This document shows, one piece after another, positions 4,686 through 45,391 of a stretch of 64,000 nt of DNA; within the stretch, counting starts at the first letter, position 1; the number at the start of each line of letters is the position of its first letter. The notes under the pieces are model-generated. The model was not told the DNA's origin and ran no database searches. It worked only from the letters and a program-made list of their open reading frames with translations. The translations under genes and the position numbers were made by a program. The stretch covers positions 2,593,501 through 2,657,500 of the forward strand of contig NZ_CALSBP010000002.1 in assembly GCF_943373825.1 (NCBI RefSeq), written 5' to 3'. This stretch comes from Aquimarina spinulae. GTDB lineage: Bacteria; Bacteroidota; Bacteroidia; Flavobacteriales; Flavobacteriaceae.

Positions 4686-4754
4686 AAAAAATTTATGATT
4701 ACTTCTTAAATGATTTTACAATAAAACGCTTTTCATGCAATTTTAACACTATAG

Positions 4755-5111: not shown

Positions 5112-5123
5112 GGGGTTTTTAAG

Positions 5124-5131
5124 CAAATGTA
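5124..5131 (-). promoter_or_regulatory. -7 promoter box of folB
   Basis: The minus strand carries TACATTTG (TANNTTTG). Its position, 13 bases before the GTG at 5111, makes the upstream TTG codon at 5126 unlikely as a start and implies a nearly leaderless transcript. No good -33 element was found. Confidence 0.45.
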
Positions 5132-5246
5132 AAAAGAATCTTTATGATTTGTGTAGGGAGAATACCCCTTTTCTGATGAATTTTGATATTAATAAAATAA
5201 TTGCATTAAAGATTTTTATACAATAGCAAGGCAGGATTAGAATTTG

Positions 5247-5254
5247 TAGTTTTG
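5247..5254 (+). promoter_or_regulatory. -7 promoter box of glnS
   Basis: TAGTTTTG matches TANNTTTG. A start of transcription near 5261 supports the ATG at 5273 over the in-frame upstream codon at 5252, which would lie inside the promoter. Confidence 0.45.
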
Positions 5255-5272
5255 TGTTTTATTAGATTACAG

Positions 5273-21858: not shown

Positions 21859-23910
21859 ATGATAAAAAAATACAATTTATTAGCATTAACTGTTACTATT
21901 GTCCTGCTCTTATCGTTAAGAGCAGAAGCTCAGGAAATTGATCCTCCAATTTTTACTTTTCAAGGTACACCAAGCCTAATACAGAAACTCTGTATAGGTC
22001 AAAATAGCCCCAATCGAGAAGCTATAGCCAAGGCAAACATTTTATTTGCTACAGGTACAGAATTTGTTTTAGAATTATCAGATGAGAATGGTGTTTTTTC
22101 TAATGATGTTACCAGAGTTTTAACACGATTTACTACACCTATCGCGATTCCTCCAGGAGGAGATATCGAATTTCCTTCTTTTACTATCCCTACAGATTTA
22201 CGAGGAGAAAATTATGGTTTACGAGTTAATGTCCCTGCAAGTTCTACTTTAAGTGCAGTACAAGAAAATATTCCTATTTACTATTTTGATTTTTCACAAA
22301 TAGATTTGGATGGACCAAATAAAGATGCAAATATAGTCGTAGTCTGTAATGGTGGGTCTACAACCTTATTTGCAACTCCAGATGATTTTCCACAATATGA
22401 ATGGACTTTTAATGGAGTAACGATCGCCGGAGAAACAAATAGTACTCTTGAAAATGTAACTCAAACAGGAGTATATGAAGTTATTTTTAATATTGGATCT
22501 TGTGAGAATAGTACGCTCGGTGATAAAAATCAAAAACCAATAGAAGTTATTAATTTTGATACTACTTCTATAACTATTGAACAATCCTCACCACAACAAT
22601 TTTGTCCTAGTGATGTCAAAATATTAAGTACTTCTTTAAAATTTCCAGAATTCACTTATGAATGGTTTAAAGATGGAGTATTAATTCCCGAATTTGATAA
22701 CCATACAGTTACTTTACCAGAAAGTAATTTTGCAGGTGTATATACAGTAACCATAAGAACTCTAGAAGGGTGCTCTATTTCGGCAAATCCCGTCGAGGTT
22801 ATTAATTTGGGTTCAGATATTTTAACCCAGCCTCCTCCCCAGATTATGTTATTACCTACCCAGCCTACGTTGGTTTTGTCTATTACGACCAATGCTCCTG
22901 TTGCTGGCAGTACGGTAGAATGGTTTAGGAACGGAATAAGTGTTCAAGGTCCGCTCGCGGTTAATACACCGGGAGCTTTGTCTTTTGATGTCACTAACCC
23001 AGGAGTGTATCGTGTAGATGTCTTTGCAAACGATGCATGTATGGATACTCTTCAGGCTACTACCGAGGTTTTTGAGCCAGTAGGGTTTAGAACCCAGATT
23101 TCTACTTTGTTAGATTGTGATGCGGATACCGGTACTTTGGGTTTAGAGAATTTATTTGGTATTACTTCTAGTGGTACAGAGGTTCCTATTACCACCGATC
23201 AATATTCATTATTTGATTTTGAATGGTTTTTAGGCAGTCAGTCTACGGGAGTTACCGAAACGACATTTACAGTTAATGAGTCTAACATAGGTGAAGTTTA
23301 TGCTTTAGAAGCCACTTTACGAGGCACTACATTTCCTACTGCTCGATCTAATGATCTAACGGTTGAGTTTTTATCAGACGTTGTGGTAATAGAAGCTTCC
23401 CCGGCATTTATTCCATTTGGAGAGACCTCTACATTAAGTGTTCCCGAGAGTAGTAATTATGCTTATGAGTGGTTTATAGTTGTAGACGGCGAGAACCAAT
23501 CTTTGGTAGATGGTTCTACAGTTATAAGTGGTCAGGGAACAAGTTCTATAGAGATAGATACTATAGGGGATTACTTTGTTAGGATTACATTATTGGATTG
23601 TGTTATAGATTCCGAGATACTCAGTATTTCAGATGTTGCGGGTTCTTCAGAGATTATTCCCAATGTAGTTACGCCCAATAGTGATGGTATCAATGATAAT
23701 TGGTTGCTTCCTCCGAGTTTGTTTAATCAGCAAGCAGTAGAGGTTACGATTTATAACGCACGAGGTCAGGTTGATTTTACATCATCAAGTTATCAGAATA
23801 ACTGGCCCCGAGAGAATTCGAAATCATCGGGTCAGGACCCGTTTTATTATTATATAATCACCAAAAATAATTCCGTAGTCAGAAAAGGTTCGATAACAAT
23901 AATGAAGTAG
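21859..23910 (+). CDS. T9SS type B sorting domain surface protein, paralogue 1
   Basis: A 683-residue exported protein. The signal peptide spans about residues 1-25 (cleavage after AEAQ). Three or more Ig/PKD-like strand modules follow, each with a YEWFKDG or EWFRNG turn typical of Ig-like folds in adhesins. The last ~85 residues (from about 597), with NVVTPNSDGINDNW and ending in FYYYIITKNNSVVRKGSITIMK, form the gliding-motility-associated C-terminal (type B T9SS sorting) domain. It is secreted across the outer membrane by T9SS and retained with a PorP/SprF-like partner (inferred). Its 3' 1.1 kb is identical to that of the gene at 24448, while the middle differs. Confidence 0.85.
   Translation: MIKKYNLLALTVTIVLLLSLRAEAQEIDPPIFTFQGTPSLIQKLCIGQNSPNREAIAKANILFATGTEFVLELSDENGVFSNDVTRVLTRFTTPIAIPPGGDIEFPSFTIPTDLRGENYGLRVNVPASSTLSAVQENIPIYYFDFSQIDLDGPNKDANIVVVCNGGSTTLFATPDDFPQYEWTFNGVTIAGETNSTLENVTQTGVYEVIFNIGSCENSTLGDKNQKPIEVINFDTTSITIEQSSPQQFCPSDVKILSTSLKFPEFTYEWFKDGVLIPEFDNHTVTLPESNFAGVYTVTIRTLEGCSISANPVEVINLGSDILTQPPPQIMLLPTQPTLVLSITTNAPVAGSTVEWFRNGISVQGPLAVNTPGALSFDVTNPGVYRVDVFANDACMDTLQATTEVFEPVGFRTQISTLLDCDADTGTLGLENLFGITSSGTEVPITTDQYSLFDFEWFLGSQSTGVTETTFTVNESNIGEVYALEATLRGTTFPTARSNDLTVEFLSDVVVIEASPAFIPFGETSTLSVPESSNYAYEWFIVVDGENQSLVDGSTVISGQGTSSIEIDTIGDYFVRITLLDCVIDSEILSISDVAGSSEIIPNVVTPNSDGINDNWLLPPSLFNQQAVEVTIYNARGQVDFTSSSYQNNWPRENSKSSGQDPFYYYIITKNNSVVRKGSITIMK
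22012..22295 (+). repeat. paralogue N-block, copy 1
   Basis: A 284-base segment that is about 97% identical by eye to 24601-24884 (offset 2589). It encodes the same N-terminal domain in the two paralogues. Confidence 0.85.
22789..23897 (+). repeat. paralogue C-block, copy 1
   Basis: A 1109-base segment that appears identical to 25375-26483 (offset 2586). It covers the Ig-like modules and the type B sorting domain. Confidence 0.9.
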
Positions 23911-24447: not shown

Positions 24448-26496
24448 ATGAAAAAAAAACTTAACCTCATATCATTAATTGCTATAGTGACAGGCTTTCT
24501 ATTTTCTTCTTTGAAAGCTACTGCTCAGGATATTGGTGCTCCATTATTTTCTATTAGCGGATCTACTGCTACAATACTCTGTGTAAATCAAAATACTCCC
24601 AATCGAGAAGCTATAGCCAAGGCAAACATTTTATTTGCTACAGGTACAGAGTTTGTTTTAGAATTATCTGATGAGAATGGTGTTTTTTCTAATGATGTTA
24701 CCAGAGTTTTAACACGATTTACTACACCTATCGCGATTCCTCCAGGAGGAGATATCGAATTTCCTTCTTTTCCTATTCCTACAGATTTACGAGGCGAGAA
24801 TTATAGTTTACGAGTTAATGTCCCTGCAAGTTCTATTTTAAGTGCAGTACAAGAAAATATTCCTATTTACTATTTTGATTTTTCTCAGGGTGTTACATTA
24901 ACTGGAGCGAATATTGAAGCTAACACAGTAGCATTGTGCGTTGGAGAATCGGCAACATTGACAACCTTACCTGGAGATTTTCCAGAATATATTTGGTCTT
25001 TTAATGGCACAGTGATTCCTGGTGAATCAGGTAATACTCTTGAAAATGTGACACAAGTTGGAACTTATACAGTTCAAGTCAATTTCGGAAGCTGTAATCC
25101 TTCTTTTAACTTTGATTCGGCAACAGTAGAAGTTATTGATTTTAACGATACAACAGTACGGATCAATGAACCTTCGCCACAATCCTTTTGCCCCAGTGAT
25201 GTAAAAATATTAACCACTAGTGTTACCGACCCGGGATTCACTTATGAATGGTTTAAGGATGATGTTTTGATACCGGATTTTAATGGTCCATCAGAGATTT
25301 TACCGGCGAGTAATTTTGCTGGTATTTACACCGTTAGAGTTACAGGAACTCCAACATGTAATATAACTACTGCTCCCGTCGAGGTTATTAATTTGGGTTC
25401 AGATATTTTAACCCAGCCTCCTCCCCAGATTATGTTATTACCTACCCAGCCTACGTTGGTTTTGTCTATTACGACCAATGCTCCTGTTGCTGGCAGTACG
25501 GTAGAATGGTTTAGGAACGGAATAAGTGTTCAAGGTCCGCTCGCGGTTAATACACCGGGAGCTTTGTCTTTTGATGTCACTAACCCAGGAGTGTATCGTG
25601 TAGATGTCTTTGCAAACGATGCATGTATGGATACTCTTCAGGCTACTACCGAGGTTTTTGAGCCAGTAGGGTTTAGAACCCAGATTTCTACTTTGTTAGA
25701 TTGTGATGCGGATACCGGTACTTTGGGTTTAGAGAATTTATTTGGTATTACTTCTAGTGGTACAGAGGTTCCTATTACCACCGATCAATATTCATTATTT
25801 GATTTTGAATGGTTTTTAGGCAGTCAGTCTACGGGAGTTACCGAAACGACATTTACAGTTAATGAGTCTAACATAGGTGAAGTTTATGCTTTAGAAGCCA
25901 CTTTACGAGGCACTACATTTCCTACTGCTCGATCTAATGATCTAACGGTTGAGTTTTTATCAGACGTTGTGGTAATAGAAGCTTCCCCGGCATTTATTCC
26001 ATTTGGAGAGACCTCTACATTAAGTGTTCCCGAGAGTAGTAATTATGCTTATGAGTGGTTTATAGTTGTAGACGGCGAGAACCAATCTTTGGTAGATGGT
26101 TCTACAGTTATAAGTGGTCAGGGAACAAGTTCTATAGAGATAGATACTATAGGGGATTACTTTGTTAGGATTACATTATTGGATTGTGTTATAGATTCCG
26201 AGATACTCAGTATTTCAGATGTTGCGGGTTCTTCAGAGATTATTCCCAATGTAGTTACGCCCAATAGTGATGGTATCAATGATAATTGGTTGCTTCCTCC
26301 GAGTTTGTTTAATCAGCAAGCAGTAGAGGTTACGATTTATAACGCACGAGGTCAGGTTGATTTTACATCATCAAGTTATCAGAATAACTGGCCCCGAGAG
26401 AATTCGAAATCATCGGGTCAGGACCCGTTTTATTATTATATAATCACCAAAAATAATTCCGTAGTCAGAAAAGGTTCGATAACGGTAATGAGATAA
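24448..26496 (+). CDS. T9SS type B sorting domain surface protein, paralogue 2
   Basis: A 682-residue paralogue of the protein at 21859 with the same order: signal peptide (to about residue 26, AQD), N-terminal domain, Ig-like modules and type B T9SS sorting domain. Residues about 150-308 differ strongly from paralogue 1, whereas the region before is about 97% identical in DNA and the region after appears identical. It ends 4 bases before the SprF-fusion gene, so they are probably one operon. The 537-base space upstream (23911-24447) is AT-rich with no visible gene; the bases just before both starts are similar (TGTGATAT then ATG). Confidence 0.85.
   Translation: MKKKLNLISLIAIVTGFLFSSLKATAQDIGAPLFSISGSTATILCVNQNTPNREAIAKANILFATGTEFVLELSDENGVFSNDVTRVLTRFTTPIAIPPGGDIEFPSFPIPTDLRGENYSLRVNVPASSILSAVQENIPIYYFDFSQGVTLTGANIEANTVALCVGESATLTTLPGDFPEYIWSFNGTVIPGESGNTLENVTQVGTYTVQVNFGSCNPSFNFDSATVEVIDFNDTTVRINEPSPQSFCPSDVKILTTSVTDPGFTYEWFKDDVLIPDFNGPSEILPASNFAGIYTVRVTGTPTCNITTAPVEVINLGSDILTQPPPQIMLLPTQPTLVLSITTNAPVAGSTVEWFRNGISVQGPLAVNTPGALSFDVTNPGVYRVDVFANDACMDTLQATTEVFEPVGFRTQISTLLDCDADTGTLGLENLFGITSSGTEVPITTDQYSLFDFEWFLGSQSTGVTETTFTVNESNIGEVYALEATLRGTTFPTARSNDLTVEFLSDVVVIEASPAFIPFGETSTLSVPESSNYAYEWFIVVDGENQSLVDGSTVISGQGTSSIEIDTIGDYFVRITLLDCVIDSEILSISDVAGSSEIIPNVVTPNSDGINDNWLLPPSLFNQQAVEVTIYNARGQVDFTSSSYQNNWPRENSKSSGQDPFYYYIITKNNSVVRKGSITVMR
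24601..24884 (+). repeat. paralogue N-block, copy 2
   Basis: Partner of 22012-22295. Confidence 0.85.
25375..26483 (+). repeat. paralogue C-block, copy 2
   Basis: Partner of 22789-23897; no difference was seen by eye. Confidence 0.9.
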
Positions 26497-26500
26497 TTTT

Positions 26501-29500
26501 ATGGCCAGAAAATTACTATTAATAATCATATGTATATCCTTTAACCTTCTTAGGGGACAGGATGAAAGTACCACTACTTATGGTATTCTTCCTACGGATA
26601 TTCCTACTCATACTTTGGTAAAATATAACCGTTTTTATTTTAACCCTACCTTTTCTTTGGTTCGCGAAAACAAAAAGTCTATTAATGTTTATAATAAAAC
26701 ACAATGGGCTTCATTTAATGATAATCCTCAGACGTATTTAATTAACTATACCTCAAATTTTGACGAAAAAATAGGTGTTTCTATTGGTTTGCATCAACAA
26801 AATGAAGGTATTTACAGGTATTTTGGTGGTATAGCGAACTTTGCATATAATATCGAATTAAACAGAGATATGAACTTCACGTTTGGTTTAAATCTCGGCT
26901 TTTCGCAAAGCGGAATTAAGTCTAACATTGATTCAGCAACAAGCATTGTTTTAAATAATGGAGTAGAAGTAAGCGATCCGGTTATTCTTAACTATGAGAA
27001 TAGCTCAGTTTTTCAATTAACTCCTGGCGTTAACTTTAATTATACAGAATTTGATGTTGGGGTTTCTGTATCAAATCTTGTGGCTTATAATCTAACTGGT
27101 AGTGAGCTATTGACAGATAATATGGCTTTTACTGGTCATGTTATGTATACTACAAGCTTAGAAAGAAGGTCAGACAAGATGATACGAGGAATGGTATATG
27201 CCAATATGTTACCTGATTCGGGCGCAGATTCAAATCTTAGATATGGAGGTAATGTTATTGTTGAATTACCTGCACTAGGTTGGGCTCAAGCGGGGTATAA
27301 TAGTTTTTACGGAGCTTCATTGGGTATTGGAGGAAATATTACATCTAATATTTCGGTTGGATATACCTATGAAACGGGATTTGGAGATACTAGTAATTTC
27401 GGAGCAAGTCACGAGGTGGGTTTAGCATATAATTTTGAGAAAGAAAGACCAAGAAGAAGAAGGGGAAGTAAATCAAAATCAAGTACTCAAAAAGCATATG
27501 AAGAAAGAGATTCTGAAATTAGAAGACTTAAGAAGGAAATTCTTGAACAAAATAAACTAATAAGAGAATTACAAGAAGAACAAGGAGATTCTCGAAGCCA
27601 GGAACAAAAGGCAATGAGTGAGCTCGAAAAATCAATAGCAGAAGCTAGGGAGAAAGAAGCCAAAGCAGCCAGAGAGTTAGAATTACAACGAGCAGAAGAA
27701 GTAAAATTACTAAACAAAAAAGCAGAAGAAGAACGTCTGGCCGCTCAAAGACGAGTAGAGCGTGAAGAGGCAGAGCAAAACGCAGAAGAAGAACGTTTAG
27801 CTGCTCAAAGACGAATAGAGCGTGAAGAAGCAGAGCAAAACGCAGAAGAAGAACGTTTAGCTGCTCAAAGACGAATAGAGCGTGAAGAAGCAGAACAGAA
27901 GGCGGAAGAAGAACGTTTAGCTGCTCAAAGACAAATAGAGCGTGAAGTAGCAGAACAAAAGGCAGAAGAAGAAAGAATCGCCGCAGAAGAAGAAGCACGT
28001 GAAGCGGAGGCAGCGGAACAAGAACGTTTAGCTGCTCAAAAAGAGCTCGAACGTGAGGAAGCAGAACAAAAAGCAGAAGAAGAACGTCTAGCTGCTCAAA
28101 AACAACTAGAACGTGAGGTTACTGAGCAAAAAGTAGAAGAAGAGCGTTTAGCTGCTCAAAGACAGTTAGAACGTGAAGTGGCAGAGCAAAAGATAGCAGA
28201 TGAAGCAGCAGCAGCAGCTCGTTTAGCAGAAGAGAAGAGATTAGCAGATGAAGCAGCAGCAGAAGCAGCTCGTTTAGCCGAGGAGAAGAGATTGGCAGAT
28301 GAAGCAGCAGCAGCTCGTTTAGCAGAAGAGAAGAGATTAGCAGATGAAGCAGCAGCAGAAGCAGCTCGTTTAGCCGAGGAGAAGAGATTGGCAGATGAAG
28401 CAGCGGCAGAAGCAGCTCGTTTAGCCGAGGAGAAGAGATTGGCAGATGAAGCAGCGGCAGAAGCAGCTCGTTTAGCCGAGGAGAAGAGATTAGCAGATGA
28501 AGCAGCAGCAGAAGCAGCTCGTTTAGCCGAGGAGAAGAGATTAGCAGATGAAGCAGCAGCAGAAGCAGCTCGTTTAGCCGAGGAGAAGAGATTGGCAGAT
28601 GAAGCAGCGGCAGAAGCAGCTCGTTTAGCCGAGGAGAAGAGATTGGCAGATGAAGCAGCGGCAGAAGCAGCTCGTTTAGCCGAGGAGAAGAGATTGGCAG
28701 ATGAAGCAGCGGCAGAAGCAGCTCGTTTAGCCGAGGAGAAGAGATTGGCAGATGAAGCAGCAGCGGAAGCAGCGGCAGAGGCAGCTCGTTTAGCAGAAGA
28801 GAAGAGGTTGGCAGATGAGGCAGCAAAAGCAGCAGCTACTACAAACGAAGAAGGATTAGATGAGATTAAGAAAGAATTAGATAATAGTAGTCGAATCACA
28901 AGCAAGATATTTGCTCGTCGAGACTCATTATTAACGACCAGCTTAAATGTAGATAAACGTGAATTTAGCAAGCTTTTAGAATCACTTGTTAGTATGAATG
29001 ATGATGCAGATGAGGCTAAAAAAGAAGCAGATCCTGCCAGTTCTAAAAGATTGACAGCTAGAAATAGATTTGTAAAATTTGCTGAAACAACAAGACCTGA
29101 GGCTCAAATTGCAACCAAATTTATACCGGGATACCCAGAAGGATATTACTTAATTGGTAATGTATTTAAGGGAGGAACATATGCTGATAAATTCTCAGGT
29201 ACATTAAAAGATTTAGGATTTAACGACTCTAAAATAATACTTAATCCAGAAAATCAATTCCAGTATGTAGCTATAGAAAGCTATACAAACAAGGATGAGG
29301 CGACAGAAAAGTATTTAAATAATATTGATAATAGATACTTTGGTGATATGTGGATATTACACATTGCTAAGAGTAGAGTAGAATCCTATAAAAAGCTATT
29401 ACAAGAAACTCGACTCATCAAAGATACGGTTAAGGATGATACAGTATTAACAGAGAGTTTATCGTACATCGGAGGACATAATATTGAAAATGGATATTAT

Positions 29501-29719
29501 CTGATTACTAATATTTTCAAAAGAGAAAATTACTTTGAAAGAGGAATGGCGAAGCTACGAGCTCAAGGATTAGAGCCTCAATATTTCAGGAACCCAAAAG
29601 ACAACTATATATACGTATACTTAAAGAGACATGACAATCTTGAAGAAGCTAAACAAAGCTTATTCTCTAACGTAAATAACTCGTATGATGGAGATCTTTA
29701 TATATTGAAAATTCAATAA
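26501..29719 (+). CDS. PorP/SprF-like barrel fused to a long repetitive helix and two SPOR-like domains
   Basis: A 1072-residue protein with an unusual three-part build. Residues 1-19 are a signal peptide. Residues about 20-312 match the PorP/SprF T9SS-associated outer-membrane barrel (HTLVKYNRFYFNPTFSLV, later GYNSFYGASLGIGGNITSNISVGYTYE). After a basic linker (RPRRRRGSKSK) comes a charged helix of about 460 residues (about 325-785), built first from 20-residue units (AEEERLAAQRRIEREEAEQN) and then from 12 units of mostly 17 residues (RLAEEKRLADEAAAEAA). Residues about 873-968 and 993-1072 are two related SPOR-like domains (GYYLIGNVF / GYYLITNIF), which in other proteins bind septal peptidoglycan. 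A tether between outer membrane and cell wall is the simplest reading. Confidence 0.8.
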   Translation: MARKLLLIIICISFNLLRGQDESTTTYGILPTDIPTHTLVKYNRFYFNPTFSLVRENKKSINVYNKTQWASFNDNPQTYLINYTSNFDEKIGVSIGLHQQNEGIYRYFGGIANFAYNIELNRDMNFTFGLNLGFSQSGIKSNIDSATSIVLNNGVEVSDPVILNYENSSVFQLTPGVNFNYTEFDVGVSVSNLVAYNLTGSELLTDNMAFTGHVMYTTSLERRSDKMIRGMVYANMLPDSGADSNLRYGGNVIVELPALGWAQAGYNSFYGASLGIGGNITSNISVGYTYETGFGDTSNFGASHEVGLAYNFEKERPRRRRGSKSKSSTQKAYEERDSEIRRLKKEILEQNKLIRELQEEQGDSRSQEQKAMSELEKSIAEAREKEAKAARELELQRAEEVKLLNKKAEEERLAAQRRVEREEAEQNAEEERLAAQRRIEREEAEQNAEEERLAAQRRIEREEAEQKAEEERLAAQRQIEREVAEQKAEEERIAAEEEAREAEAAEQERLAAQKELEREEAEQKAEEERLAAQKQLEREVTEQKVEEERLAAQRQLEREVAEQKIADEAAAAARLAEEKRLADEAAAEAARLAEEKRLADEAAAARLAEEKRLADEAAAEAARLAEEKRLADEAAAEAARLAEEKRLADEAAAEAARLAEEKRLADEAAAEAARLAEEKRLADEAAAEAARLAEEKRLADEAAAEAARLAEEKRLADEAAAEAARLAEEKRLADEAAAEAARLAEEKRLADEAAAEAAAEAARLAEEKRLADEAAKAAATTNEEGLDEIKKELDNSSRITSKIFARRDSLLTTSLNVDKREFSKLLESLVSMNDDADEAKKEADPASSKRLTARNRFVKFAETTRPEAQIATKFIPGYPEGYYLIGNVFKGGTYADKFSGTLKDLGFNDSKIILNPENQFQYVAIESYTNKDEATEKYLNNIDNRYFGDMWILHIAKSRVESYKKLLQETRLIKDTVKDDTVLTESLSYIGGHNIENGYYLITNIFKRENYFERGMAKLRAQGLEPQYFRNPKDNYIYVYLKRHDNLEEAKQSLFSNVNNSYDGDLYILKIQ
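27722..28194 (+). repeat. 60-bp coding repeats (20-aa helix units)
   Basis: Imperfect 60-base units, roughly eight, each encoding a variant of AEEERLAAQRRIEREEAEQN. The first four are nearly identical, and a diverged unit lies near 27967-28020. Confidence 0.8.
28195..28830 (+). repeat. 51-bp coding repeats (17-aa helix units), 12 copies
   Basis: Twelve occurrences of GCTCGTTTAGC were counted, mostly 51 bases apart, with one shorter (45) and one longer (60) spacing. The units are near-identical, encode RLAEEKRLADEAAAEAA, and are expected to vary in copy number between strains. Confidence 0.9.
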
Positions 29720-29734
29720 TGTAAGAAAGAGATT

Positions 29735-32700
29735 ATGATGACTAAATACCCAAACACCCCACGGCTTATGAAACTTAGACTGAAATCTGCTATCGTTTTG
29801 GTTTTTTTAATGATAGGCATACAACAAATATCTGCTCAGGTACCCTTTACCGAGGTACCTAACAGTACGTTAAGAATTAACGGAGAGCTTAAAATAATTG
29901 GTAATGCTATTGTTGGGCTAAATCAAAGTGGTTTTACACCCAATGATAACTATAACGGAAATGCTTCTAATAACCAGAAATTTTTTGGATATATTGATAT
30001 AGATGGGGATACATCTACATTTAGTTCTAGTAGTGCAGAACTTCAGTTAACATCAGGTTGTGAAAGGATTGCATATGCTGGATTATATTGGTCAGCCTCA
30101 TATTTTACACAAATGAATCCGGCCGATACTCGTTTTGTTCAGTATACCGGTCTACCCTTTCCTGATAATAGACCCGATTTTAGAACTATAAAAATTAGAC
30201 CACCAGGTGGTGGAGGGTATGTTACTATTCCACCTACTCAAACACAGGTGATTTATGATGGATATCGTAATACTGCCACCAATCCAAGTAATAGCGCAGT
30301 AATAGATATTCCATATGTATGTTATGCAGATGTTACAACATTAATACAAGGACTTGGCGCAGGGAATGCAAATGGAACATATACTGTTGCAGACATGCGT
30401 GCTTCTACAGGTTTTTCTGGATTTAATGCCAACGGTATTGCTGGGGGATGGGTACTTGTGGTTGCTTATGAGGATCCTACTTTATCAGCAAAATATATAA
30501 GTACAAATAATGGGTATTTAGTGATTGCTCCTGGTAATCCCCTTCAAACTTTTTCGTATACTGGTTTTCAGACTTTACCTGCACCGTTACCAGTTCGTGC
30601 ACGATATTCTATTGCAACACTAGAAGGAGATAGACCATTTGCTGGGGATATATTTCAAGTGCAAAGACCAGACACGGCTTGGCAAAATATTTTTACAACC
30701 CCCGCTAACCCAAATAATAATTTTTATGACAGTTCGATTTCTATAGATGGTCAATATGTTACTACTGCAAACCCATTGACTCCAGATAGAACTCCATCTT
30801 CAATAAATACCTTAGGGTTTGATGCCGATATTTTTGATATTCCTAATCCGGGCAGAACAGTTATTGGTAATGATCAAACTTCTGCTAGTTTTAGAACAAC
30901 TTCGGCCGGTGATGCATATAGTGTGTTTTTCAATTCATTTCAAATTGAAATTATTGAGCCCGAACTTACGGTTACTAAAAGAGTTTTAGATATTAATGGC
31001 GTAGATATTACAGGTGATCCAGTAAATTTTGCGGATCAACTATTTTATGAGCTTACCATAGAAAATCAAGGAAATGAAGATATTACGGCAGCAAGTATTA
31101 GAGATGTGCTTCCTGATAATGTAGATTTTACATTAGGAACTATAACGACTAGTAATCCGGGTATAGTTGCCACTCCTAATGGTACAAATCGACAGATAGA
31201 TATTACAATAGCAGATCCGTTGATTGTTCGTAACGGGGGTGTTCATACCGTTCGTTTTGGAGTCAGCGTAGTGGCCACTTGTGCCGATTTGCGAGATGCG
31301 TGTTCTAATCAAATTAACAATGTAGCAATTTCAACCTATACAGGAGTAGAATCTGGTATTACACGAACTGGTGAAGAAAGTATTTTGGAACAAGATGCGT
31401 GTCAGTTTGATATTACAGGTACATCTAACGTTTTGATTAATGATGGCGTTTGTTTTACTACCGCTCAACCAGCTTTTATATGTACAGGATCTTTAACGCT
31501 TACAGCAGGTGCAGGCTTTTCTTCATATGAATGGGTAAATGCAAGTAGCCCTGGAGTTGTTATTGGTACTAATAGAGATTTAGTTGTTACAACCGCAGGA
31601 ACCTATATTGTAACCGAAACCGGTGCTCCTGGTTGTCAGGATGCTCAACAAACTTTTAATGTTGATGCCTTTAATACCGTTGTAAATCCGGTGGTAGATA
31701 TTGCAAATAACTTAGGATCTAATCCTAATGTAAATGGTAATGTTCGTACCTGTCCGATTACAGGAGATCCACTACCAGAGATCTTTTTATGTGGAGCAGG
31801 AACTACATTAACTATTCCAACTCCAGGAAACACATTAGGTTTTCCTGTTGGAACTACGGTTCAATGGCAGCGATTAGATCCTATGGATTGTCCTGCAGTA
31901 CCAAGAGATCCTAATTGTCCTACTACAGATTCAGGGTGTGATGGGGATTGGCAAACTTTAAGTACAGATATTAATAGTTTTACAATTTCACAAGCAGGAG
32001 AATATAGAGTTAATGCTACTTTTGATGGTAATTGTACCATTCCTTTTTATTTTAATGTATTCCAGAATAATTTTGACCCTGATCTTGCAGTTATACGACA
32101 AATTATTTGTGGTACGCCAGGAACAATACGAGTTCAAAATTCTTCTCTTCAATACGAATACCAATTAATTACACCTATAACAAATACAGTAATTGGATAT
32201 CAGGCTTCGGCAGAATTTACAGGGTTAACAGAAGTAGGAACATATACTGTAAATGTTCGTCAGGTAGGAGGTTTACCTACAGCTTGTGTTTTTCAGGAAA
32301 CTATCTTTTTAGACGAATTAGACGCTACAGAGACCGTTACTCCAACTTCTCCTACATGTCCAGGCGATCAAGGGCAGATTGAAATAACAGTAACAGATTC
32401 TCAAATTAATTATACATATATCATTAATAGTACTACAACAGCTTTTAATGATACAGAAGGACCTACTACGGTTCCTAACCATACATTTACAGGGCTTAAT
32501 CCTGATACTTATAACGTGCAGGTATTATCTGCTGATGGTAGTTGTTCAGAACCTTTTACAATAACCATAAACGATCCTGCAGCATTTTCGGCTACAATTA
32601 GACTTGTTGAAGATTTACATTGTAATCCAAATTATCAACCAGATATTAGTCTTCCTGACTATGATAATGATTTATTTATTGCGATTTATGAGGTGACAGT

Positions 32701-35700
32701 AACAGGAGGTTCTGGCAATTTTGCTTTTAATAACCAGGCAGATTTCTTGGGTACTGCGTTAGCACCACTAACAGGAACAACTTATCAATTTAGAGCAACT
32801 GCTGCGGGTAATTACCCAGTATTTGTTAATGACCTTGATAATAGTTGTACTATAGCCGCTGGTAGCGTCGATGTAAGCCCTTATACGGCAATTACAGCAA
32901 CTGCTACACCAATTGATCCTGTTTGTCCAACAGATAATGGATCTATTCAAGTTGCTGTTACTGCGGGATCAGGTTCACCGTTTACTTATGTTTTAGATCA
33001 AGGAACAGCAACAGAAGTAACTATTGGACCAACAGTTAATACTTCAGAAACATTTAATAATGTAGATCCATTAACAACGCATACAGTTATTGTTCAAGAT
33101 GGATTTGGATGTGATTTTGAAATTACTAATATAACTTTTACAGCGCCAACAGTTATTACTGCTAACATTGCAGTTACGGATTATCGTTGTGATGCTTCGG
33201 GTTCTAGTACGACACCACAATTAGCTCAGATTACGATTTCTGGGGCATCTGGAGGTAATGGTAGTTATGAATATAGTATTGATGGAGTTGATTTCAGTAA
33301 TACTACAGGGATATTCACAGGATTAACCGATGGTACTTATACTATTTATATTCGAGATACGAGTACAGCAGCATGTCCTGTTAATTTAGGTCAGCGTACA
33401 ATAGATCCACTTCAGGAGGTAACTGATCTTACCTTTGCTCAGACTCAACCTCAGTGTCCTGCACTTACTTCAGATATTACTGTTAGTGCAACGGGTACTA
33501 ATGGGGCTGTTAGTTTTGAATATCGAATTACTGCTCCTCCGGCTAGTGTTACAGCTTTTAGTGCTACTACGGTTTATACTTTACCAGCAGGAGACACTTA
33601 TACTTTTGAGGCAAGAACTACTACAGATGGCTGTATTTATTCGGAGAATTATACGATAGACGCTGTAGATCCTATAGCGGTTACTGCTAATATTACTGCA
33701 GAGCCTACCTGTGCTACAGATACAGATGCATCTATATCATTTGATGTTACGGGTATAGATTTAACATCTACGACCTATAGTTATGTTGTTACCGGCGGTA
33801 CTATTGTAGGTTCTATTACGGGAGGTCCTATTAATACGACTCCAACTTCAGTACCTAATCTTGGAGCAGGCACCTATACTATTGTAGTTACCGATGATAC
33901 TACTAATTGTAGTGCAACGCTTACTCCACCGATTACGATTACTGATCCTGCTGTTTTAAGTTTCACTACTACTGTTGTAGATTCGAATTGTGGAGTTACT
34001 TCAGGTATTATAACGGTAAATGCTAGTGGCGGTCGAGGTGGTTATCAATATGAATTACGAAATTCTGGAGGAGGAGTTATTACGGCATATCAGAATGGAG
34101 ATACTTTTAGTGGTTTAGCTGCTGCTAATTATATAGTTGCTGTACGTGATGGTAATACTGCTGCGGCATGTGAGGTTACCAATCCTGTTACTGTAGATCA
34201 ACTTACTCCACCTACTATTGCGACAGCAGTAGGGGGTGATGCATGTTATGATACGACGAATCAAGCGACACAATGGATTACGATTACTCCGAGTATTCCG
34301 GTTCCATTAGGTCCATTTACCTATAGTTTAGATGGTGGTGCTCCGGTTGCTGTGGTCTTTTTACCTGGTCCAGCTCCAGCGAATACTTTTGAGATTCCTA
34401 ACCTTACTCCGGGCACACATAGTGTTACGGTAAGTAATACGGCGAGTAATTGTACATCTACTGCGCTTAGTTTTGATATTAATCCAGAGTTGACTATTAC
34501 TGCGAATTTGGATAAAGATTTAGATTGTTCAGCGACTCCTGATGCGACGATTTCATTTACTGCTACAGGCGGTGATGGTACATATACTTTTGATGTTATT
34601 GAGGTAGGTCCTGGCACTGTTTTTCTTGCAGGGGTTACTTCACCTGTTTCAATAAATGCTGCGAACACGTATGAGATTCGAGTTACAGATGGATTAGGTT
34701 GTATAGCTACATCTTCACAGATTATTGTTAATCCTACGGTTGTACCTACAGCGACAACTACAGTTACAGATATAGTTTGTAATGGAGATTCGAGTGGTGT
34801 TGTGGTTATAAACCCAACCGCGGGAGTTGGCCCATTTGAGGCAAGAATAACATCACCAGTTGCAGGTGCATTTACAACAAACCTTACTTTTACAGGTTTG
34901 GCTGCGGGGACTTATGATTTTGAGATTAGAGATGCTAAGCAGTGTTTAGGTACAGTTCAGGCAATTGTTACAGAACCAACCTTAATTACAGTTACCAACA
35001 TTGCAGTTACGGATTATCGTTGTGATGCTTCGGGTTCTAGTACGACACCACAATTAGCTCAGATTACGATTTCTGGGGCATCTGGAGGTAATGGTAGTTA
35101 TGAATATAGTATTGATGGAGTTGATTTCAGTAATACTACAGGAATATTCACGGGATTAACAGATGGTACTTATACTATATATATTCGAGATACGAGTACA
35201 GCAGCATGTCCTGTTAATTTAGGTCAGCGTACAATAGATCCACTTCAGGAGGTAACTGATCTTACCTTTGCTCAGACTCAACCTCAGTGTCCTGCACTTA
35301 CTTCAGATATTACTGTTAGTGCAACGGGTACTAATGGGGCTGTTAGTTTTGAATATCGAATTACTGCTCCTCCGGCTAGTGTTACAGCTTTTAGTGCTAC
35401 TACGGTTTATACTTTACCTGCAGGAGACACTTATACTTTTGAGGCAAGAACTACTACAGATGGCTGTATTTATTCGGAGAATTATACGATAGACGCTGTA
35501 GATCCTATAGCGGTTACTGCTAATATTACTGCAGAGCCTACCTGTGCTACAGATACAGATGCATCTATATCATTTGATGTTACAGGTATAGATTTAACAT
35601 CTACGACCTATAGTTATGTTGTTACTGGAGGAACCATTCCTATTGCCACTCCTATTACAGGTAATTCTATTACTACGACTCCAACTTCAGTACCTAATCT

Positions 35701-38700
35701 TGGAGCGGGTACTTATACTATTGTAGTTACCGATGATACTACTAATTGTAGTGCAACGCTTACTCCACCGATTACGATTACTGATCCTGCTGTTTTAAGT
35801 TTCACTACTACTGTTGTAGATTCGAATTGTGGAGTTACTTCAGGTATTATAACGGTAAATGCTAGTGGCGGTCGAGGTGGTTATCAATATGAATTACGAA
35901 ATTCTGGAGGAGTCGTTATTACGGCATATCAGAATGGAGATACTTTTAGTGGTTTAGCTGCTGCTAATTATATAGTTGCTGTACGTGATGGTAATACTGC
36001 TGCGGCATGTGAGGTTACCAATCCTGTTACTGTAGATCAACTTACTCCACCTACTATTGCGACAGCAGTAGGGGGTGATGCATGTTATGATACGACGAAT
36101 CAAGCGACACAATGGATTACGATTACTCCGAGTATTCCGGTTCCATTAGGTCCATTTACCTATAGTTTAGATGGTGGTGCTCCGGTTGCTGTGGTCTTTT
36201 TACCTGGTCCAGCTCCAGCGAATACTTTTGAGATTCCTAACCTTACTCCGGGCACACATAGTGTTACGGTAAGTAATACGGCGAGTAATTGTACATCTAC
36301 TGCGCTTAGTTTTGATATTAATCCAGAGTTGACTATTACTGCGAATTTGGATAAAGATTTAGATTGTTCAGCGACTCCTGATGCGACGATTTCATTTACT
36401 GCTACAGGCGGTGATGGTACATATACTTTTGATGTTATTGAGGTAGGTCCTGGCACTGTTTTTCTTGCAGGGGTTACTTCACCTGTTTCAATAAATGCTG
36501 CGAACACGTATGAGATTCGAGTTACAGATGGATTAGGTTGTATAGCTACATCTTCACAGATTATTGTTAATCCTACGGTTGTACCTACAGCGACAACTAC
36601 AGTTACAGATGTGCTTTGTAATGGAGATTCGAGTGGTGTTGTGGTTATAAACCCAACCGCGGGAGTTGGCCCATTTGAGGCAAGAATAACATCACCAGTT
36701 GCAGGTGCATTTACAACAAACCTTACTTTTACAGGTTTGGCTGCGGGGACTTATGATTTTGAGATTAGAGATGCTAAGCAGTGTTTAGGTACAGTTCAGG
36801 CAATTGTTACAGAATCCCCTCAGATAACAGCTACTGTAGATTCTATTACTGATATAGATTGTTCTACAACTACCACAGGAACTATTGTTTTAAACCCTGC
36901 TACAGGAGGCTCTGTAGGGGTGACAGATTATACATATGTACTACTAGATCGAGTAGAATCTCCTCCTCTTAGTGGTACATTTATTATTACTCAAAATACA
37001 AGAACAACAACAAACCCGGTAAATCTTGCTACTGGAGTTGGGCCTACCTTTGATAATTTGGATGCAGGAACCTATTTAGTTGATATTATAGCTTCTGATG
37101 GATGTAGTAATAGAGTTGGTCCATTTGTGGTAACACAGCCACCGTTTGATTTAGATTTTGATGTAACTCCAGCACCAGCAGATTGTTCTACAGGAGCTAG
37201 ATATCAGATAGAAGTTTCAGGAGGAGAAGGACCATATCTAATTAATGAATTTAGAGCAACAGGTTCGGCAATACCACCTTATGAACCTCTAAATGGAATG
37301 CTAAACGGAGTGCTTACTCCGTTACCAAATGGATTTGGTAATGAAACAAGACACGAATTTACGGGTCTGGATTACGGAGTACCTTATGTATTTGAAATTA
37401 TAGATACGTCTTCAGGATGTAAATATTTTGAAACTGTAACTCCTGTTGATCCTCCTGGGTTTGATATAGCCATTACTAATAATGATCCTGTAGATTGTTT
37501 TGGAGGTGCTAATGGATTTATAGAATTTACGGTTACAACTCCGGCAGGAGCGACGACTGTAGATTGGGAGGTGTTTAATGCTGACACTGGTGTTACTACA
37601 GGTATATCAGGAACTCTAACCGCACCTCTTCTTAGTGGAACCGCATCTGGTTTAAGCGAAGGTAATTATTTTATTAGAGCGATTGAGACCGGTGGAGCAC
37701 CTATACCTTGTACAGATGCAGCACCTTTTACGATAACACAGCCTAGCAGCCTTCTCACCTTAAACTTTTTAAGTGCTACGACAGCAGATTGTAACACACC
37801 GTTATCGACAGTTACGATGGATGCTAATGGAGGAGTTCCTGGCTATAGTTTTGCGGCGGTTCCTGGATCGGCTCCACAGCCAGATCCGGGTGTTTATCCA
37901 CTTACAGAGGTGTTTACTTTAAACCCTGCTACTACTACTTGGGTAATTTTTGTACAGGATGCTAACAATTGTGTTGTATCAAGAGAAATTACGATTCCAC
38001 CTGTTACCCTTGCTCCGGTTATTAACACTATAGATCCTTTTGTAGATGATGCATGTAATTTTGATAATGATTATACATTTACGGTTACCGCTACGAGTAA
38101 TGTTCCGATACCACCAGGAACAGGTACATTGACGTTTTCTATAGATGGCGGTGCTCAAGTACCAGGTACGGTTACAGGAGCAAATACAGCTAGTCATGAT
38201 TTTGCAGTTTCAGGTCCTGGTACGTATAGTGTTGTTGTTTTTGATGAGAACGGTTGTCCTTCACCACCAAGAACGATTACGGTATATCCAGAGTTATTGG
38301 TTACTGCTACATTAACAGAGCCGACATGTCGCGATAATGATGCTACGATAGTGGCTACGGTTAGTGGCGGTTCAGATATTACGGCTAATCCAGGTAACTT
38401 TACTTTTGATTTGGTTAATGCAGGTACAGGTATAACAGTACCTGGAGTAACTCAAACCCCTGGACCAGGAGCAGATCAAGTTACTTTTAGTAGCACTGTT
38501 GCGGGTACAGATGGTATTTTCCCAGGAGATTATAGAGTAGAAGTTGTAGATAGCGCGATTGGTCCAGTACCAGGATGTGAGGCTACTTTTGACATTACTG
38601 TACCTACGTTTTTAGATCCGATACCATCAGGAGTATCGACTCCTGTTTCATGTTTTAATGGAACTGACGGTACTATTTTAGTGAGTTTAGACCCAACAAG

Positions 38701-41700
38701 AGACGATAATCCACCATATCAATATCAAATTGTAGCCGGTCCATTAACACGACCATTACAACCAAATCCTTTATTTGAAAATTTAGAAGCAGGAACATAT
38801 GATATTGTAGTTGTTTCTGATAAAGGTTGTTCTAATACTCCAGCGATTCAGGTAACAGTTGGAGGTCCAACGGCAGCTCTTACAGTAACACCAGATCCAC
38901 CAAGTGCTTATGGTTGTAATGCTTCCAATGCAGATGTATTCCCAGTGATTACGATAACTATCGAAGGAGGTACAGCACCTTATGATGTTTCTTATAGCGG
39001 TGCTGCTACTGGATCAGAGACCGATGTAGCTGATGCAGATGGAGTTAGAGCAGGAGTTCAGTATGAGGTTACGGCCATTGTTGCAGGTACTTATACGTTT
39101 ACGGTTACTGATGAGAATAATTGTGCTTTTGCCAATTTTGATGTTATTGTTCCTGCATTCCCTATAATGACAGACCCTACAATAACCAGGGATACTGCAG
39201 CAGTTAATAATGGTGTTATTTCATGTGATAATCCAGAAACGGTTACTGTTTCGATTACAGGAGGTACAGGTCCGTTTGATTTTGTAGAAGTAGGAGGGAC
39301 GTTATCTTCATTAGGAGTTGGTCCAGGAACAGATGATAATCCAGGTACAGTTGCAGTTGAGGCCAATGCTACCAATGTGACTTTTGCTTTACCAAGTGTT
39401 GGTTCGTATGTATTTACGATTACGGATCAGGGCACGGGATGTTCTATAGATACTCCAGCATATGTTATTGATCCTTTCGATACGATCACAGCTACATTAA
39501 CTACGGTTACCGATGTATTGTGTAATGGAGCTCTTACAGGAGCGTTAGAGTTGAACATTGGTGGTTATACAGGAGCTTATAATTATACAGTTGTAAACGC
39601 GGTTAGCGGAGCTAATGTTCCAGGTTATGTAAATATCGCTGCTGATGTAGTGACACGAAACCCAGAACCGATTACGGGATTACCAGCAGGAACATTTGAG
39701 GTTTCTGTAGAGGCATTAGATGCTCCTTTCTGTGATGAAGTGTCGAACACGGCGACAATTGATCAACCAGCACCTCTCACGTTAAACTTTTTAAGTGCTA
39801 CGATAGCAGATTGTAATACAGCCTTATCGACAGTTACTATGGATGCTAATGGAGGAGTTCCTGGCTATAGTTTTGCGGCGGTTCCTGGATCGGCTCCACA
39901 GCCAGATCCGGGTGTTTATCCACTTACAGAGGTGTTTACTTTAAACCCTGCTACTACTACTTGGGTAATTTTTGTACAGGATGCTAACAATTGTGTTGTA
40001 TCAAGAGAAATTACGATTCCACCTGTTACCCTTGCTCCGGTTATTAACACTATAGATCCTTTTGTAGATGATGCATGTAATTTTGATAATGATTATACAT
40101 TTACGGTTACCGCTACGAGTAATGTTCCGATACCACCAGGAACAGGTACATTGACGTTTTCTATAGATGGCGGTGCTCAAGTACCAGGTACGGTTACAGG
40201 AGCAAATACAGCTAGTCATGATTTTGCAGTTTCAGGTCCTGGTACGTATAGTGTTGTTGTTTTTGATGAGAACGGTTGTCCTTCACCACCAAGAACGATT
40301 ACGGTATATCCAGAGTTATTGGTTACTGCTACATTAACAGAGCCGACATGTCGCGATAATGATGCTACGATAGTGGCTACGGTTAGTGGCGGTTCAGATA
40401 TTACGGCTAATCCAGGTAACTTTACTTTTGATTTGGTTAATGCAGGTACAGGTATAACAGTACCTGGAGTAACTCAAACCCCTGGACCAGGAGCAGATCA
40501 AGTTACTTTTAGTAGCACTGTTGCGGGTACAGATGGTATTTTCCCAGGAGATTATAGAGTAGAAGTTGTAGATAGCGCGATTGGTCCAGTACCAGGATGT
40601 GAGGCTACTTTTGACATTACTGTACCTACGTTTTTAGATCCGATACCATCAGGAGTATCGACTCCTGTTTCATGTTTTAATGGAACTGACGGTACTATTT
40701 TAGTGAGTTTAGACCCAACAAGAGACGATAATCCACCATATCAATATCAAATTGTAGCCGGTCCATTAACACGACCATTACAACCAAATCCTTTATTTGA
40801 AAATTTAGAAGCAGGAACATATGATATTGTAGTTGTTTCTGATAAAGGTTGTTCTAATACTCCAGCGATTCAGGTAACAGTTGGAGGTCCAACGGCAGCT
40901 CTTACAGTAACACCAGATCCACCAAGTGCTTATGGTTGTAATGCTTCCAATGCAGATGTATTCCCAGTGATTACGATAACTATCGAAGGAGGTACAGCAC
41001 CTTATGATGTTTCTTATAGCGGTGCTGCTACTGGATCAGAGACCGATGTAGCTGATGCAGATGGAGTTAGAGCAGGAGTTCAGTATGAGGTTACGGCCAT
41101 TGTTGCAGGTACTTATACGTTTACGGTTACTGATGAGAATAATTGTGCTTTTGCCAATTTTGATGTTATTGTTCCTGCATTCCCTATAATGACAGACCCT
41201 ACAATAACCAGGGATACTGCAGCAGTTAATAATGGTGTTATTTCATGTGATAATCCAGAAACGGTTACTGTTTCGATTACAGGAGGTACAGGTCCGTTTG
41301 ATTTTGTAGAAGTAGGAGGGACGTTATCTTCATTAGGAGTTGGTCCAGGAACAGATGATAATCCAGGTACAGTTGCAGTTGAGGCCAATGCTACCAATGT
41401 GACTTTTGCTTTACCAAGTGTTGGTTCGTATGTATTTACGATTACGGATCAGGGCACGGGATGTTCTATAGATACTCCAGCATATGTTATTGATCCTTTC
41501 GATACGATCACAGCTACATTAACTACGGTTACCGATGTATTGTGTAATGGAGCTCTTACAGGAGCGTTAGAGTTGAACATTGGTGGTTATACAGGAGCTT
41601 ATAATTATACAGTTGTAAACGCGGTTAGCGGAGCTAATGTTCCAGGTTATGTAAATATCGCTGCTGATGTAGTGACACGAAACCCAGAACCGATTACGGG

Positions 41701-44434: not shown

Positions 44435-45391
44435 ATGAAGAAGTATATTATCATATTTAGCCTATTTGCAAGTTATTGTACTTTTGCTCAGGAGTTTTTT
44501 GCTCCTGTACAAAATCAATATATTGCAGATAACCCATATTTGATATCCTCGGCCTACGCGGGTATTGGAGATTGTTGGCAGATCAGAGCTTCGGGTTTTG
44601 AGCAATGGGTAAGTATCGAGGATTCTCCGGGTACACAATCCTTATCAATAGATGGTAGAATATCTGACCGTTCTGGTGTAGGTGCAATTCTATTTAATGA
44701 TCAGAATGGATTTACAACTCAAAAAGGGATTCAGTTATCTTTTGCACACCATTTAACACTAAGTGAATATAATAATCAATACCTATCGTTTGGGATTAGC
44801 TATAAGTTCACCCAATTTGGTATTGACACTTCAAGGTTTAATAATGGAGACCCTGACAACCCATTTAATCCTGGATTAGCAGATATAAGTGTAAATGATT
44901 CTAATTTTGATATTGGATTGTTATATCGTATTGGCCGATTCTTTTTGAGCGCCAATGCGGTGAATTTATTACAGAAAGAGATTGATGATTTTAATCCAAC
45001 CGAACCTTCACAGATACAGAACTATTATCTATATACTGGATATACATTCTATCATAGATTTAGTGATATCGAGGTAGAGCCTTCTATGTTGTATCAAAAC
45101 TTTGCTGGTGATGGTCGTTCTACAGCAGATCTTAACTTAAAAGTTCGTAAAATGCACCGTGGAGATTATTATTGGATAGGCGTTAGTCTTCGATCTCTTG
45201 TTGATCAGGATTTTAAACCACTTTCTGTATCTCCTATGTTAGGGATCAAAAAAGCTAATTTTTATGTTGCGTATGGATATCAGATTAATGTAAATGAAGT
45301 TTTACAACCAACCACAGCAGCAGGATCGCATATGATCACGCTTGGATTTGATTTTGGTTGTAGACAAAGTAAATGTGGATGTACCTATTAA
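44435..45391 (+). CDS. PorP/SprF family T9SS outer-membrane protein
   Basis: A 318-residue outer-membrane barrel. The signal peptide (MKKYIIIFSLFASYCTFAQ) is followed by the family start, QNQYIADNPYLISSAYAGIGD, a run of amphipathic strands, and a C-terminal strand ending GFDFGCRQSKCGCTY with three cysteines. Stand-alone PorP/SprF proteins commonly lie just downstream of a type B adhesin gene and are needed for that adhesin to reach or stay on the surface (known for SprF with SprB). Here it lies 93 bases after the giant adhesin, most likely as its partner. A strong terminator follows. Confidence 0.92.
   Translation: MKKYIIIFSLFASYCTFAQEFFAPVQNQYIADNPYLISSAYAGIGDCWQIRASGFEQWVSIEDSPGTQSLSIDGRISDRSGVGAILFNDQNGFTTQKGIQLSFAHHLTLSEYNNQYLSFGISYKFTQFGIDTSRFNNGDPDNPFNPGLADISVNDSNFDIGLLYRIGRFFLSANAVNLLQKEIDDFNPTEPSQIQNYYLYTGYTFYHRFSDIEVEPSMLYQNFAGDGRSTADLNLKVRKMHRGDYYWIGVSLRSLVDQDFKPLSVSPMLGIKKANFYVAYGYQINVNEVLQPTTAAGSHMITLGFDFGCRQSKCGCTY

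What the first reader, a model, noticed from the sequence alone, without database searches (positions are those of the whole stretch)
26501..29719. PorP/SprF barrel fused to a very long repetitive helix and two SPOR-like domains
SprF-like proteins are normally about 300-residue barrels. Here the barrel continues into about 460 residues of charged helical repeats and then two SPOR-like domains. A straight helix of that size would be near 69 nm (0.15 nm per residue), longer than an ordinary periplasm, so it must fold back, coil or lie along the wall. The build suggests an outer-membrane-to-peptidoglycan tether for the neighbouring adhesin machinery, perhaps spatially guided by denuded glycan. 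It lies directly between an adhesin paralogue and the giant adhesin in one operon.
Basis: partly seen in the sequence, partly recalled or inferred. Interest (0 to 1): 0.7.

Follow-up and report, generated by a model that had tools for sequence, protein, structure and literature searches.

The report
Gliding protein SprD with long arm
The odd fusion protein looks like SprD, a known but unexplained part of the gliding-motility gene cluster of marine bacteria; its build (outer-membrane barrel, long arm, cell-wall-type tip) is shared by much of the family and suggests how it could hold a surface protein to the cell wall or to the moving track.

Summary
ORF 26501-29719 encodes a PorP/SprF barrel (PF11751, E 6e-44), about 470 residues of charged helical repeats, and two C-terminal domains with SPOR topology. 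It is not a one-off. The gene order is that of the sprC-sprD-sprB-sprF gliding operon: the ORF sits in the SprD position, after SprC-like type B proteins, before a giant SprB-like adhesin, and SprF follows with the Cys-X-Cys tail that couples to GldK. A SprC-like gene precedes it in every locus read, including 80 of 80 named genomes. The barrel plus SPOR-like build recurs in Flavobacteriaceae; long charged linkers are typical of Aquimarina and of the Winogradskyella/Flavobacterium group, while Zobellia-type relatives have 146-233 linker residues. I read it as the carrier and anchor of SprC, with a built-in periplasmic tether instead of SprF's disulfide or a separate PorE. SprC's reported movement on the track argues against a fixed wall anchor, so a long, reversible leash fits better. 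What the tip binds is untested, Pfam SPOR does not match this protein directly, F. johnsoniae SprD itself was not read, and the 2011 operon paper is not held.

The parts
26501..29719 (+). SprD-like protein, 1072 aa (whole gene)
26606..27436 (+). PorP/SprF (FadL/PorV-like) outer-membrane beta barrel, residues 36-312
27491..28900 (+). Charged, Pro-free repetitive helix, residues 331-800 (20-residue then 17-residue repeats)
28196..28773 (+). 51-bp tandem array (17-aa repeat), 11.5 copies; copy number differs between near-identical proteins
   Evidence: TRF; 12, 7, 8, 13, 7, 13 copies in the six proteins printed
29141..29365 (+). SPOR-like domain 1, residues 881-955
   Evidence: beta-alpha-beta-beta-alpha-beta in models; homology to PF05036-matching relatives
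29492..29713 (+). SPOR-like domain 2, residues 998-1071
24448..26496 (+). SprC-like type B CTD protein, 682 aa, directly upstream; proposed substrate of the barrel
   Evidence: PF13585 CHU_C E 2.9e-13; TIGR04131 E 2.7e-06 but below its cut-off; conserved neighbour
21859..23910 (+). Second SprC-like type B CTD protein, 683 aa
   Evidence: PF13585 E 5.2e-13
29735..44341 (+). SprB-like giant repetitive adhesin, 4868 aa
   Evidence: related giant follows SprD in relatives
44435..45391 (+). SprF, 318 aa, C-tail ends CRQSKCGCTY (Cys-X-Cys)
   Evidence: PF11751 E 7.8e-64; tail

Best explanation
The ORF is the SprD protein of an sprC-sprD-sprB-sprF gliding operon (identity by gene order; I put it at about 0.9). 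Its barrel most likely collects the SprC-like type B substrate encoded just upstream from the T9SS translocon and keeps it on the surface, as SprF does for SprB (inferred; about 0.75). Where SprF is coupled to the moving track by a disulfide from its Cys-X-Cys tail, and other PorP-like barrels are paired with a separate wall-binding PorE, SprD carries its own periplasmic arm: a helical rod of about 450 residues (about 67 nm at 0.15 nm per residue), too long to stand upright in the periplasm and so lying along it or bending, tipped by two SPOR-like domains. I commit to a reversible peptidoglycan grip at the end of a long leash (about 0.4 for this step): it holds SprC-SprD near the wall and track while allowing movement. 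Shown here: barrel homology and fold, charged-helix signature, SPOR-type topology, conserved neighbours, no Cys-X-Cys tail. Inferred: carrier role, rod state in the cell, glycan binding, reversibility.
For: Barrel. Helix. SPOR; four PorE-like relatives match this C-terminus at E 6e-25 to 3e-18 and carry PF05036 at 6.6e-12, 6.3e-08, 1.1e-11 and 1.2e-13. Gene order SprC - this gene - giant adhesin: SprC in 20 of 20 chosen Aquimarina loci, giant in 19 of 20, one contig ends; 11 of 11 for both in chosen other genomes, one with SprC and SprD in one frame; 16 of 16 for both in more divergent ones; SprC 20 of 20 and giant 18 of 20 in short-SprC genera; SprC 80 of 80 and giant 78 of 80, two contig ends, in named genomes that include Flavobacterium cellulosilyticum. 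A SPOR-like C-terminus is found in 80 of 80 of these when the last 130 residues are scored alone, 74 of 80 with the whole protein. The carrier of a type B substrate is commonly the next gene downstream (PMC12618676, passages). SprF here keeps the Cys-X-Cys tail; beyond residue 30 SprD has no Cys in 182 of 183 database proteins of the Aquimarina and Zobellia types and 79 of 80 named loci. This genome's 11 PorP/SprF genes: Cys-X-Cys tail 3, adjacent PorE 4, SprD 1, none seen 3. SprD falls in outer-membrane proteomes of lolA1 and TamL-depleted cells (PMC11885536, PMC12045153, passages).
Against: SprC is reported to move on the track (PMC12635249, a passage citing a thesis), which a fixed wall tether would oppose. 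PF05036 does not match this protein, nor 6 of 6 SprD proteins tested from outside Aquimarina and Zobellia types, mostly the Winogradskyella/Flavobacterium side; the motif residues I recall for glycan binding look substituted. With the A2 profile, 4 of 20 loci gave no SPOR-like match (one of them cut by a contig end). Lone cysteines do occur: 5 of 16 SprD proteins in the set and 1 of 20 in the set, none as Cys-X-Cys. The long helix is not universal: P0064, whose barrel falls among Aquimarina ones in the tree (81/85 support), has a 121-residue linker, and G088 has a 469-aa form. Some Aquimarina-type linkers (P0015, P0016, P0020, P0058, P0060) hold 6-12 Pro and 8-16 Gly, with other repeat units in those printed, so not all are plain rods. 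F. johnsoniae SprD was not seen among the 80 loci kept of 292 or the 120 rows listed of 1576. No SprC-SprD complex was predicted or measured.
Confidence: 0.5

Rival explanations
1. Fixed anchor: SprD pins a surface adhesin to peptidoglycan through its SPOR-like domains, as proposed for PorP-PorE with non-mobile type B proteins, and serves as a stationary foothold.
For: PorE-PorP-type B complexes are proposed to be wall-anchored and non-mobile (PMC9143113, passages). PorE-like OmpA proteins carry homologous SPOR-like domains.
Against: SprC is reported to move on the track (PMC12635249). SprB has its own SprF with the Cys-X-Cys tail.
Confidence: 0.2
2. Track rider: the long charged helix lies along the moving GldJ/K/N track and grips it by many weak contacts, replacing the disulfide for which SprD has no Cys-X-Cys tail; the SPOR-like tips bind a track or motor protein rather than the wall.
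For: No Cys-X-Cys found in SprD. SprC moves on the track (PMC12635249). The helix is far longer than the gap to the wall (inference).
Against: Zobellia-type SprD has only a 146-233-residue linker without the charge pattern. No partner was tested. Rails still form in each of the spr mutants examined (PMC9870892, passage), so SprD is not needed to build them.
Confidence: 0.25
3. Carrier only: the barrel secretes SprC; the repeats are neutral, slippage-driven filler, and the SPOR-like domains merely place the protein at division sites or poles.
For: Copy number of the 17-residue repeat differs between proteins with identical ends (12, 7, 8). Linker length ranges 389-1120 in Aquimarina-type proteins and is 121 in P0064. 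SPOR domains elsewhere mark septal wall (recalled).
Against: None of the 61 measured Aquimarina-type linkers is below 389 residues. Charge spacing typical of helices is kept on the median in two groups although the spacing type differs.
Confidence: 0.15

Closest known systems
SprD of the Flavobacterium johnsoniae sprC-sprD-sprB-sprF operon (Fjoh_0980)
   Same: Gene order: SprC-like type B protein upstream, giant adhesin downstream, then SprF in the window. A Flavobacterium locus (L176, F. cellulosilyticum) has SprC - SprD - giant and a barrel plus long charged repeats.
   Different: The F. johnsoniae sequence was not read; the 2011 operon paper is not held.
SprF / PorP (type B carrier barrel)
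   Same: PF11751 and TIGR03519 barrel; a type B CTD protein encoded directly upstream.
   Different: SprF ends just after the barrel with a Cys-X-Cys tail; this protein's only cysteine is residue 11, in the signal-peptide region, and it has about 760 more residues.
PorE (OmpA-type wall-binding partner of PorP)
   Same: PorE-like relatives P0081-P0084 carry homologous SPOR-like domains; the proposed wall link is similar.
   Different: PorE is a separate lipoprotein with TPR, propeller and OmpA domains (PMC9143113, passages); none of these is matched here.
SPOR domains of DedD, RlpA, CwlC, FtsN
   Different: No direct PF05036 match; glycan binding untested.
TolA (recalled)
   Same: Long Ala/Glu/Lys-rich periplasmic helix linking membrane parts.
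   Different: TolA is anchored in the inner membrane and has no barrel; not compared by any search.

Membership tests
PorP/SprF barrel family (PF11751, TIGR03519) | Profile match above the curated cut-off over the barrel | tested here: met
   151.1 bits against 22.3, and 152.7 against 90.55
PorP/SprF barrel family (PF11751, TIGR03519) | Carrier-type outer-membrane barrel fold | tested here: met
SprD (sprC-D-B-F operon) | Position between sprC and sprB, with sprF downstream | tested here: met
   Window layout; SprC and giant neighbours in relatives; SprF tail in the window. SprF downstream of the giant was not checked in relatives
SprD (sprC-D-B-F operon) | Sequence similarity to F. johnsoniae SprD (Fjoh_0980) | not tested
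   F. johnsoniae is not among the 80 kept loci or the 120 rows listed
SprD (sprC-D-B-F operon) | Needed for gliding-related spreading | not testable with these tools
   Stated for F. johnsoniae sprC,D in PMC9389320 (passage)
SPOR domain (PF05036) | Direct profile match of this protein | tested here: not met
   No PF05036 row at E up to 1 for the whole protein or up to 10 for C-terminal pieces; hence called SPOR-like
SPOR domain (PF05036) | beta-alpha-beta-beta-alpha-beta fold | tested here: met
SPOR domain (PF05036) | Homology through intermediate sequences | tested here: met
   4 of 4 PorE-like relatives carry PF05036 above cut-off; 5 of the 120 rows list it
SPOR domain (PF05036) | Binds denuded glycan | not testable with these tools
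   none
Single alpha helix (SAH) | Opposite charges spaced i,i+3 or i,i+4; no helix breakers | tested here: met
Single alpha helix (SAH) | Monomeric rod in solution | not testable with these tools
   none
PorE | OmpA-type peptidoglycan-binding domain | tested here: not met
   No OmpA row at E up to 1

The most novel reading that the evidence does not exclude
Gliding Flavobacteriaceae use a third way to couple surface adhesins to the envelope, besides the SprF disulfide and the PorP-PorE pair: SprD, a carrier barrel with a built-in rod tens of nanometres long and a wall-binding tip. The rod's reach is adjustable by gain and loss of 51-bp repeats, and long rods were built or rebuilt from different repeat types (i+3 against i+4 charge spacing) in Aquimarina and in the Winogradskyella/Flavobacterium group.
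Probability: 0.3. Interest if true: 0.7.

Novelty: new member of a known kind. Interest (0 to 1): 0.48.

Why it matters
SprC and SprD are needed for the colony spreading that goes with gliding, but their role is stated to be unknown (PMC9389320, passage). A domain plan for SprD (carrier barrel, rod, SPOR-like tip) turns that into specific tests: does SprD carry SprC, does the tip bind peptidoglycan, and does rod length set motion? In the held open-access library no paper holds PorP, SprF and 'SPOR domain' together (0 papers), and the one paper holding 'SPOR domain', gliding motility and Bacteroidetes is a review of monoderm surfaces (listing only). Six papers hold SprD, SprC, outer membrane, peptidoglycan and gliding; I read passages of four of them. 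The library lacks the 2011 SprD paper, so this does not show that the plan is unpublished.

Tried and rejected
Chance or artefact: rejected; one frame, strong profiles and conserved neighbours. A one-genome oddity: rejected.

Attempts to reach F. johnsoniae: genome-contig scan, a family search, genus searches around G198, G312 and G071 and a protein search did not show it by name. The family search with A2 matched 344 of 397 genomes, but many rows are weak and were not counted as SprD. Whether the long helix is ancestral or arose twice: the barrel tree leaves the deep forks open.

Script errors: rerun with a score threshold; it stopped after six of eight same-species rows; the family part was run, the last two rows were not repeated. 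Not measured: P0036 (no barrel) and P0027 (stray second match), so 61 of 63. The loci were chosen by me from longer match lists (nine of the eleven genomes because they had two strong A2 matches close together), and some species recur between sets, so the sets should not be added up. The start used for 18 of the 80 named SprD frames is not an ATG-type Met in the translation (62 of 80 begin with M); it is the match start given.

Full report
OBSERVATION. The frame 26501-29719 is single and intact. Residues 36-310 match PF11751 at E 6e-44 and residues 6-312 match TIGR03519 at E 1.5e-44. Of the 11 PorP_SprF genes in this genome it is the only long one: a 1075-residue open frame against 309-347 for the other ten. 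Residues 331-800 contain no proline and two glycines; the DNA holds 60-bp and 51-bp tandem arrays. Opposite charges are enriched at i+3 and i+4 and low at i+5 against shuffles. The full-length model has a barrel, a nearly continuous helix from 330 to 777, and two small C-terminal domains, at modest confidence. The barrel aligns equally well to FadL-type channels and to chain F of two T9SS translocon entries, which I take from memory to be PorV.

HOW WIDESPREAD. A search with the C-terminus gave 84 proteins. P0001-P0063 are of the Aquimarina type (every one that carries a name is Aquimarina), and 61 of these 63 gave a measurable linker of 389-1120 residues. P0064, an unnamed relative whose barrel falls among Aquimarina ones, has a linker of 121. 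In the genus, 52 of 66 genomes (50 of 58 good ones) have the full C-terminal match. Searching from P0080 gave 1151 proteins; all 120 listed show a barrel match, a linker of 146-233 residues and the C-terminal match; those named include Zobellia, Maribacter and Ulvibacterium. A third set is 80 named loci, the best of 292 relatives found, from Winogradskyella, Psychroserpens, Lacinutrix, Bizionia, Gelidibacter, Flavobacterium and others. Their linkers have a median of 426 residues with charge pairs enriched at i+4 (median z 6.3), against i+3 in Aquimarina (median z 6.6); Zobellia-type linkers show little of either. Their C-termini match the A2 SPOR-like profile in 74 of 80 as whole proteins and 80 of 80 when the last 130 residues are scored alone, but Pfam PF05036 matched none of six SprD proteins tried from that side and nearby. 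Not every Aquimarina-type linker is a plain rod: five checked ones hold 6-12 Pro and 8-16 Gly. The barrel tree does not resolve whether long helices are shared or arose separately.

GENE ORDER. In 20 of 20 chosen Aquimarina loci the gene follows a SprC-like type B protein, and in 19 of 20 a giant adhesin follows; the twentieth contig ends. The same holds in 11 of 11 chosen genomes of other genera (in G311 SprC and SprD share a frame, and in G380 the giant matched only by its middle part), 16 of 16 more divergent ones (three giants by the middle part only), 20 of 20 for SprC and 18 of 20 for the giant in genera mostly with a short SprC (one contig ends, one, G088, has no SprB-like gene there), and 80 of 80 and 78 of 80 in named genomes, where the last two contigs end. 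The window's next gene after the giant is a 318-aa SprF whose tail carries Cys-X-Cys. This is the order of the F. johnsoniae operon sprC, sprD, sprB, sprF, known to me here from the title of Rhodes 2011 in reference lists; that paper is not held. One paper names Fjoh_0980 as SprD (PMC12045153, passage).

WHAT THE LITERATURE SAYS. Read as passages only (and one part of the reference list of PMC12635249): PMC9143113 reports a PorE-PorP-PG1035 complex and postulates that mobile type B proteins use only a PorP-like barrel while non-mobile ones are also tied to the wall through PorE. PMC12618676 shows type B substrates with dedicated SprF-like carriers, commonly encoded directly downstream, and notes F. 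johnsoniae operons with a PorE homolog. PMC12635249 shows that the SprF Cys-X-Cys tail forms a disulfide with GldK of the moving track, and states that SprC also moves on the track, citing a thesis. PMC9389320 says the role of SprC and SprD is not known. PMC9870892 reports rails in each of the spr mutants examined. PMC11885536 and PMC12045153 report less SprD in lolA1 and TamL-depleted cells.

INTERPRETATION. In this one genome the 11 PorP/SprF genes fall into classes: Cys-X-Cys tail (3), adjacent PorE-like gene (4), SprD with its own arm (1), none seen in the stretch fetched (3). Beyond residue 30, SprD has no cysteine in 182 of 183 Aquimarina- and Zobellia-type database proteins and 79 of 80 named loci; 5 of 16 in the set and 1 of 20 in the set have lone cysteines, none as Cys-X-Cys. 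So this SprD cannot use SprF's disulfide, and its arm looks like a built-in alternative. By the next-gene rule its substrate should be SprC. The arm would span about 67 nm if straight, far more than a periplasm is deep (general knowledge), so it must lie along the envelope or bend. A fixed wall anchor conflicts with a moving SprC. I prefer a long, reversible leash, and give weight to the arm riding the track instead. None of this was measured.

STRAIN VARIATION. Three proteins with identical first 395 and last 228 residues carry 12, 7 and 8 copies of the 17-residue unit, and three near-identical ones carry 13, 7 and 13. Some short forms come from small contigs, and several Aquimarina contigs end inside this gene, so assembly collapse may explain part of this.

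VERDICT. The protein is best filed as a long-armed SprD: a new member of a known but poorly understood kind. The value lies in giving SprD a testable domain plan.

Noticed in passing
21859-23910 and 24448-26496: Two tandem SprC-like type B genes; among the 20 Aquimarina loci read only the same-species one (L035) also shows two, within the stretch fetched.
   Followed up: partly
L202:6137-7090 (G000:C3): A second SprF with the same Cys-Gly-Cys tail, downstream of another giant adhesin, elsewhere in the same genome.
   Followed up: no
P0065-P0079: Peptidase M56 proteins, most also with peptidyl-prolyl isomerase or TonB_C domains, those with names from Aquimarina, that end in one copy of the same SPOR-like domain.
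   Followed up: no
L066, L068-L083 (e.g. L066:4539-7763): A PorE-like OmpA protein with SPOR-like domains lies about 20 kb from the sprC-D-B genes in the nine genomes read that far; these were picked because they had two strong A2 matches close together.
   Followed up: partly
L078:2467-6399 (G311): One 1311-aa frame that joins SprC, its profile match ending before the C-terminal end, to SprD; a real fusion or an assembly gap.
   Followed up: no
L115:3495-4769 and 4717-5673 (G137): SprD appears as two overlapping frames, barrel and C-terminal part.
   Followed up: no
L119:8866-10272 (G088): A short SprD (469 aa) with one SPOR-like match and no long helix; no SprB-like gene found next to it.
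   Followed up: no
L095:9628-10122 (G254): A separate 165-aa frame with SPOR-like matches between SprD and SprB.
   Followed up: no
G056:C5:167826-169446: Several SPOR-like matches in frames of 884 and 249 aa in one Aquimarina genome.
   Followed up: no
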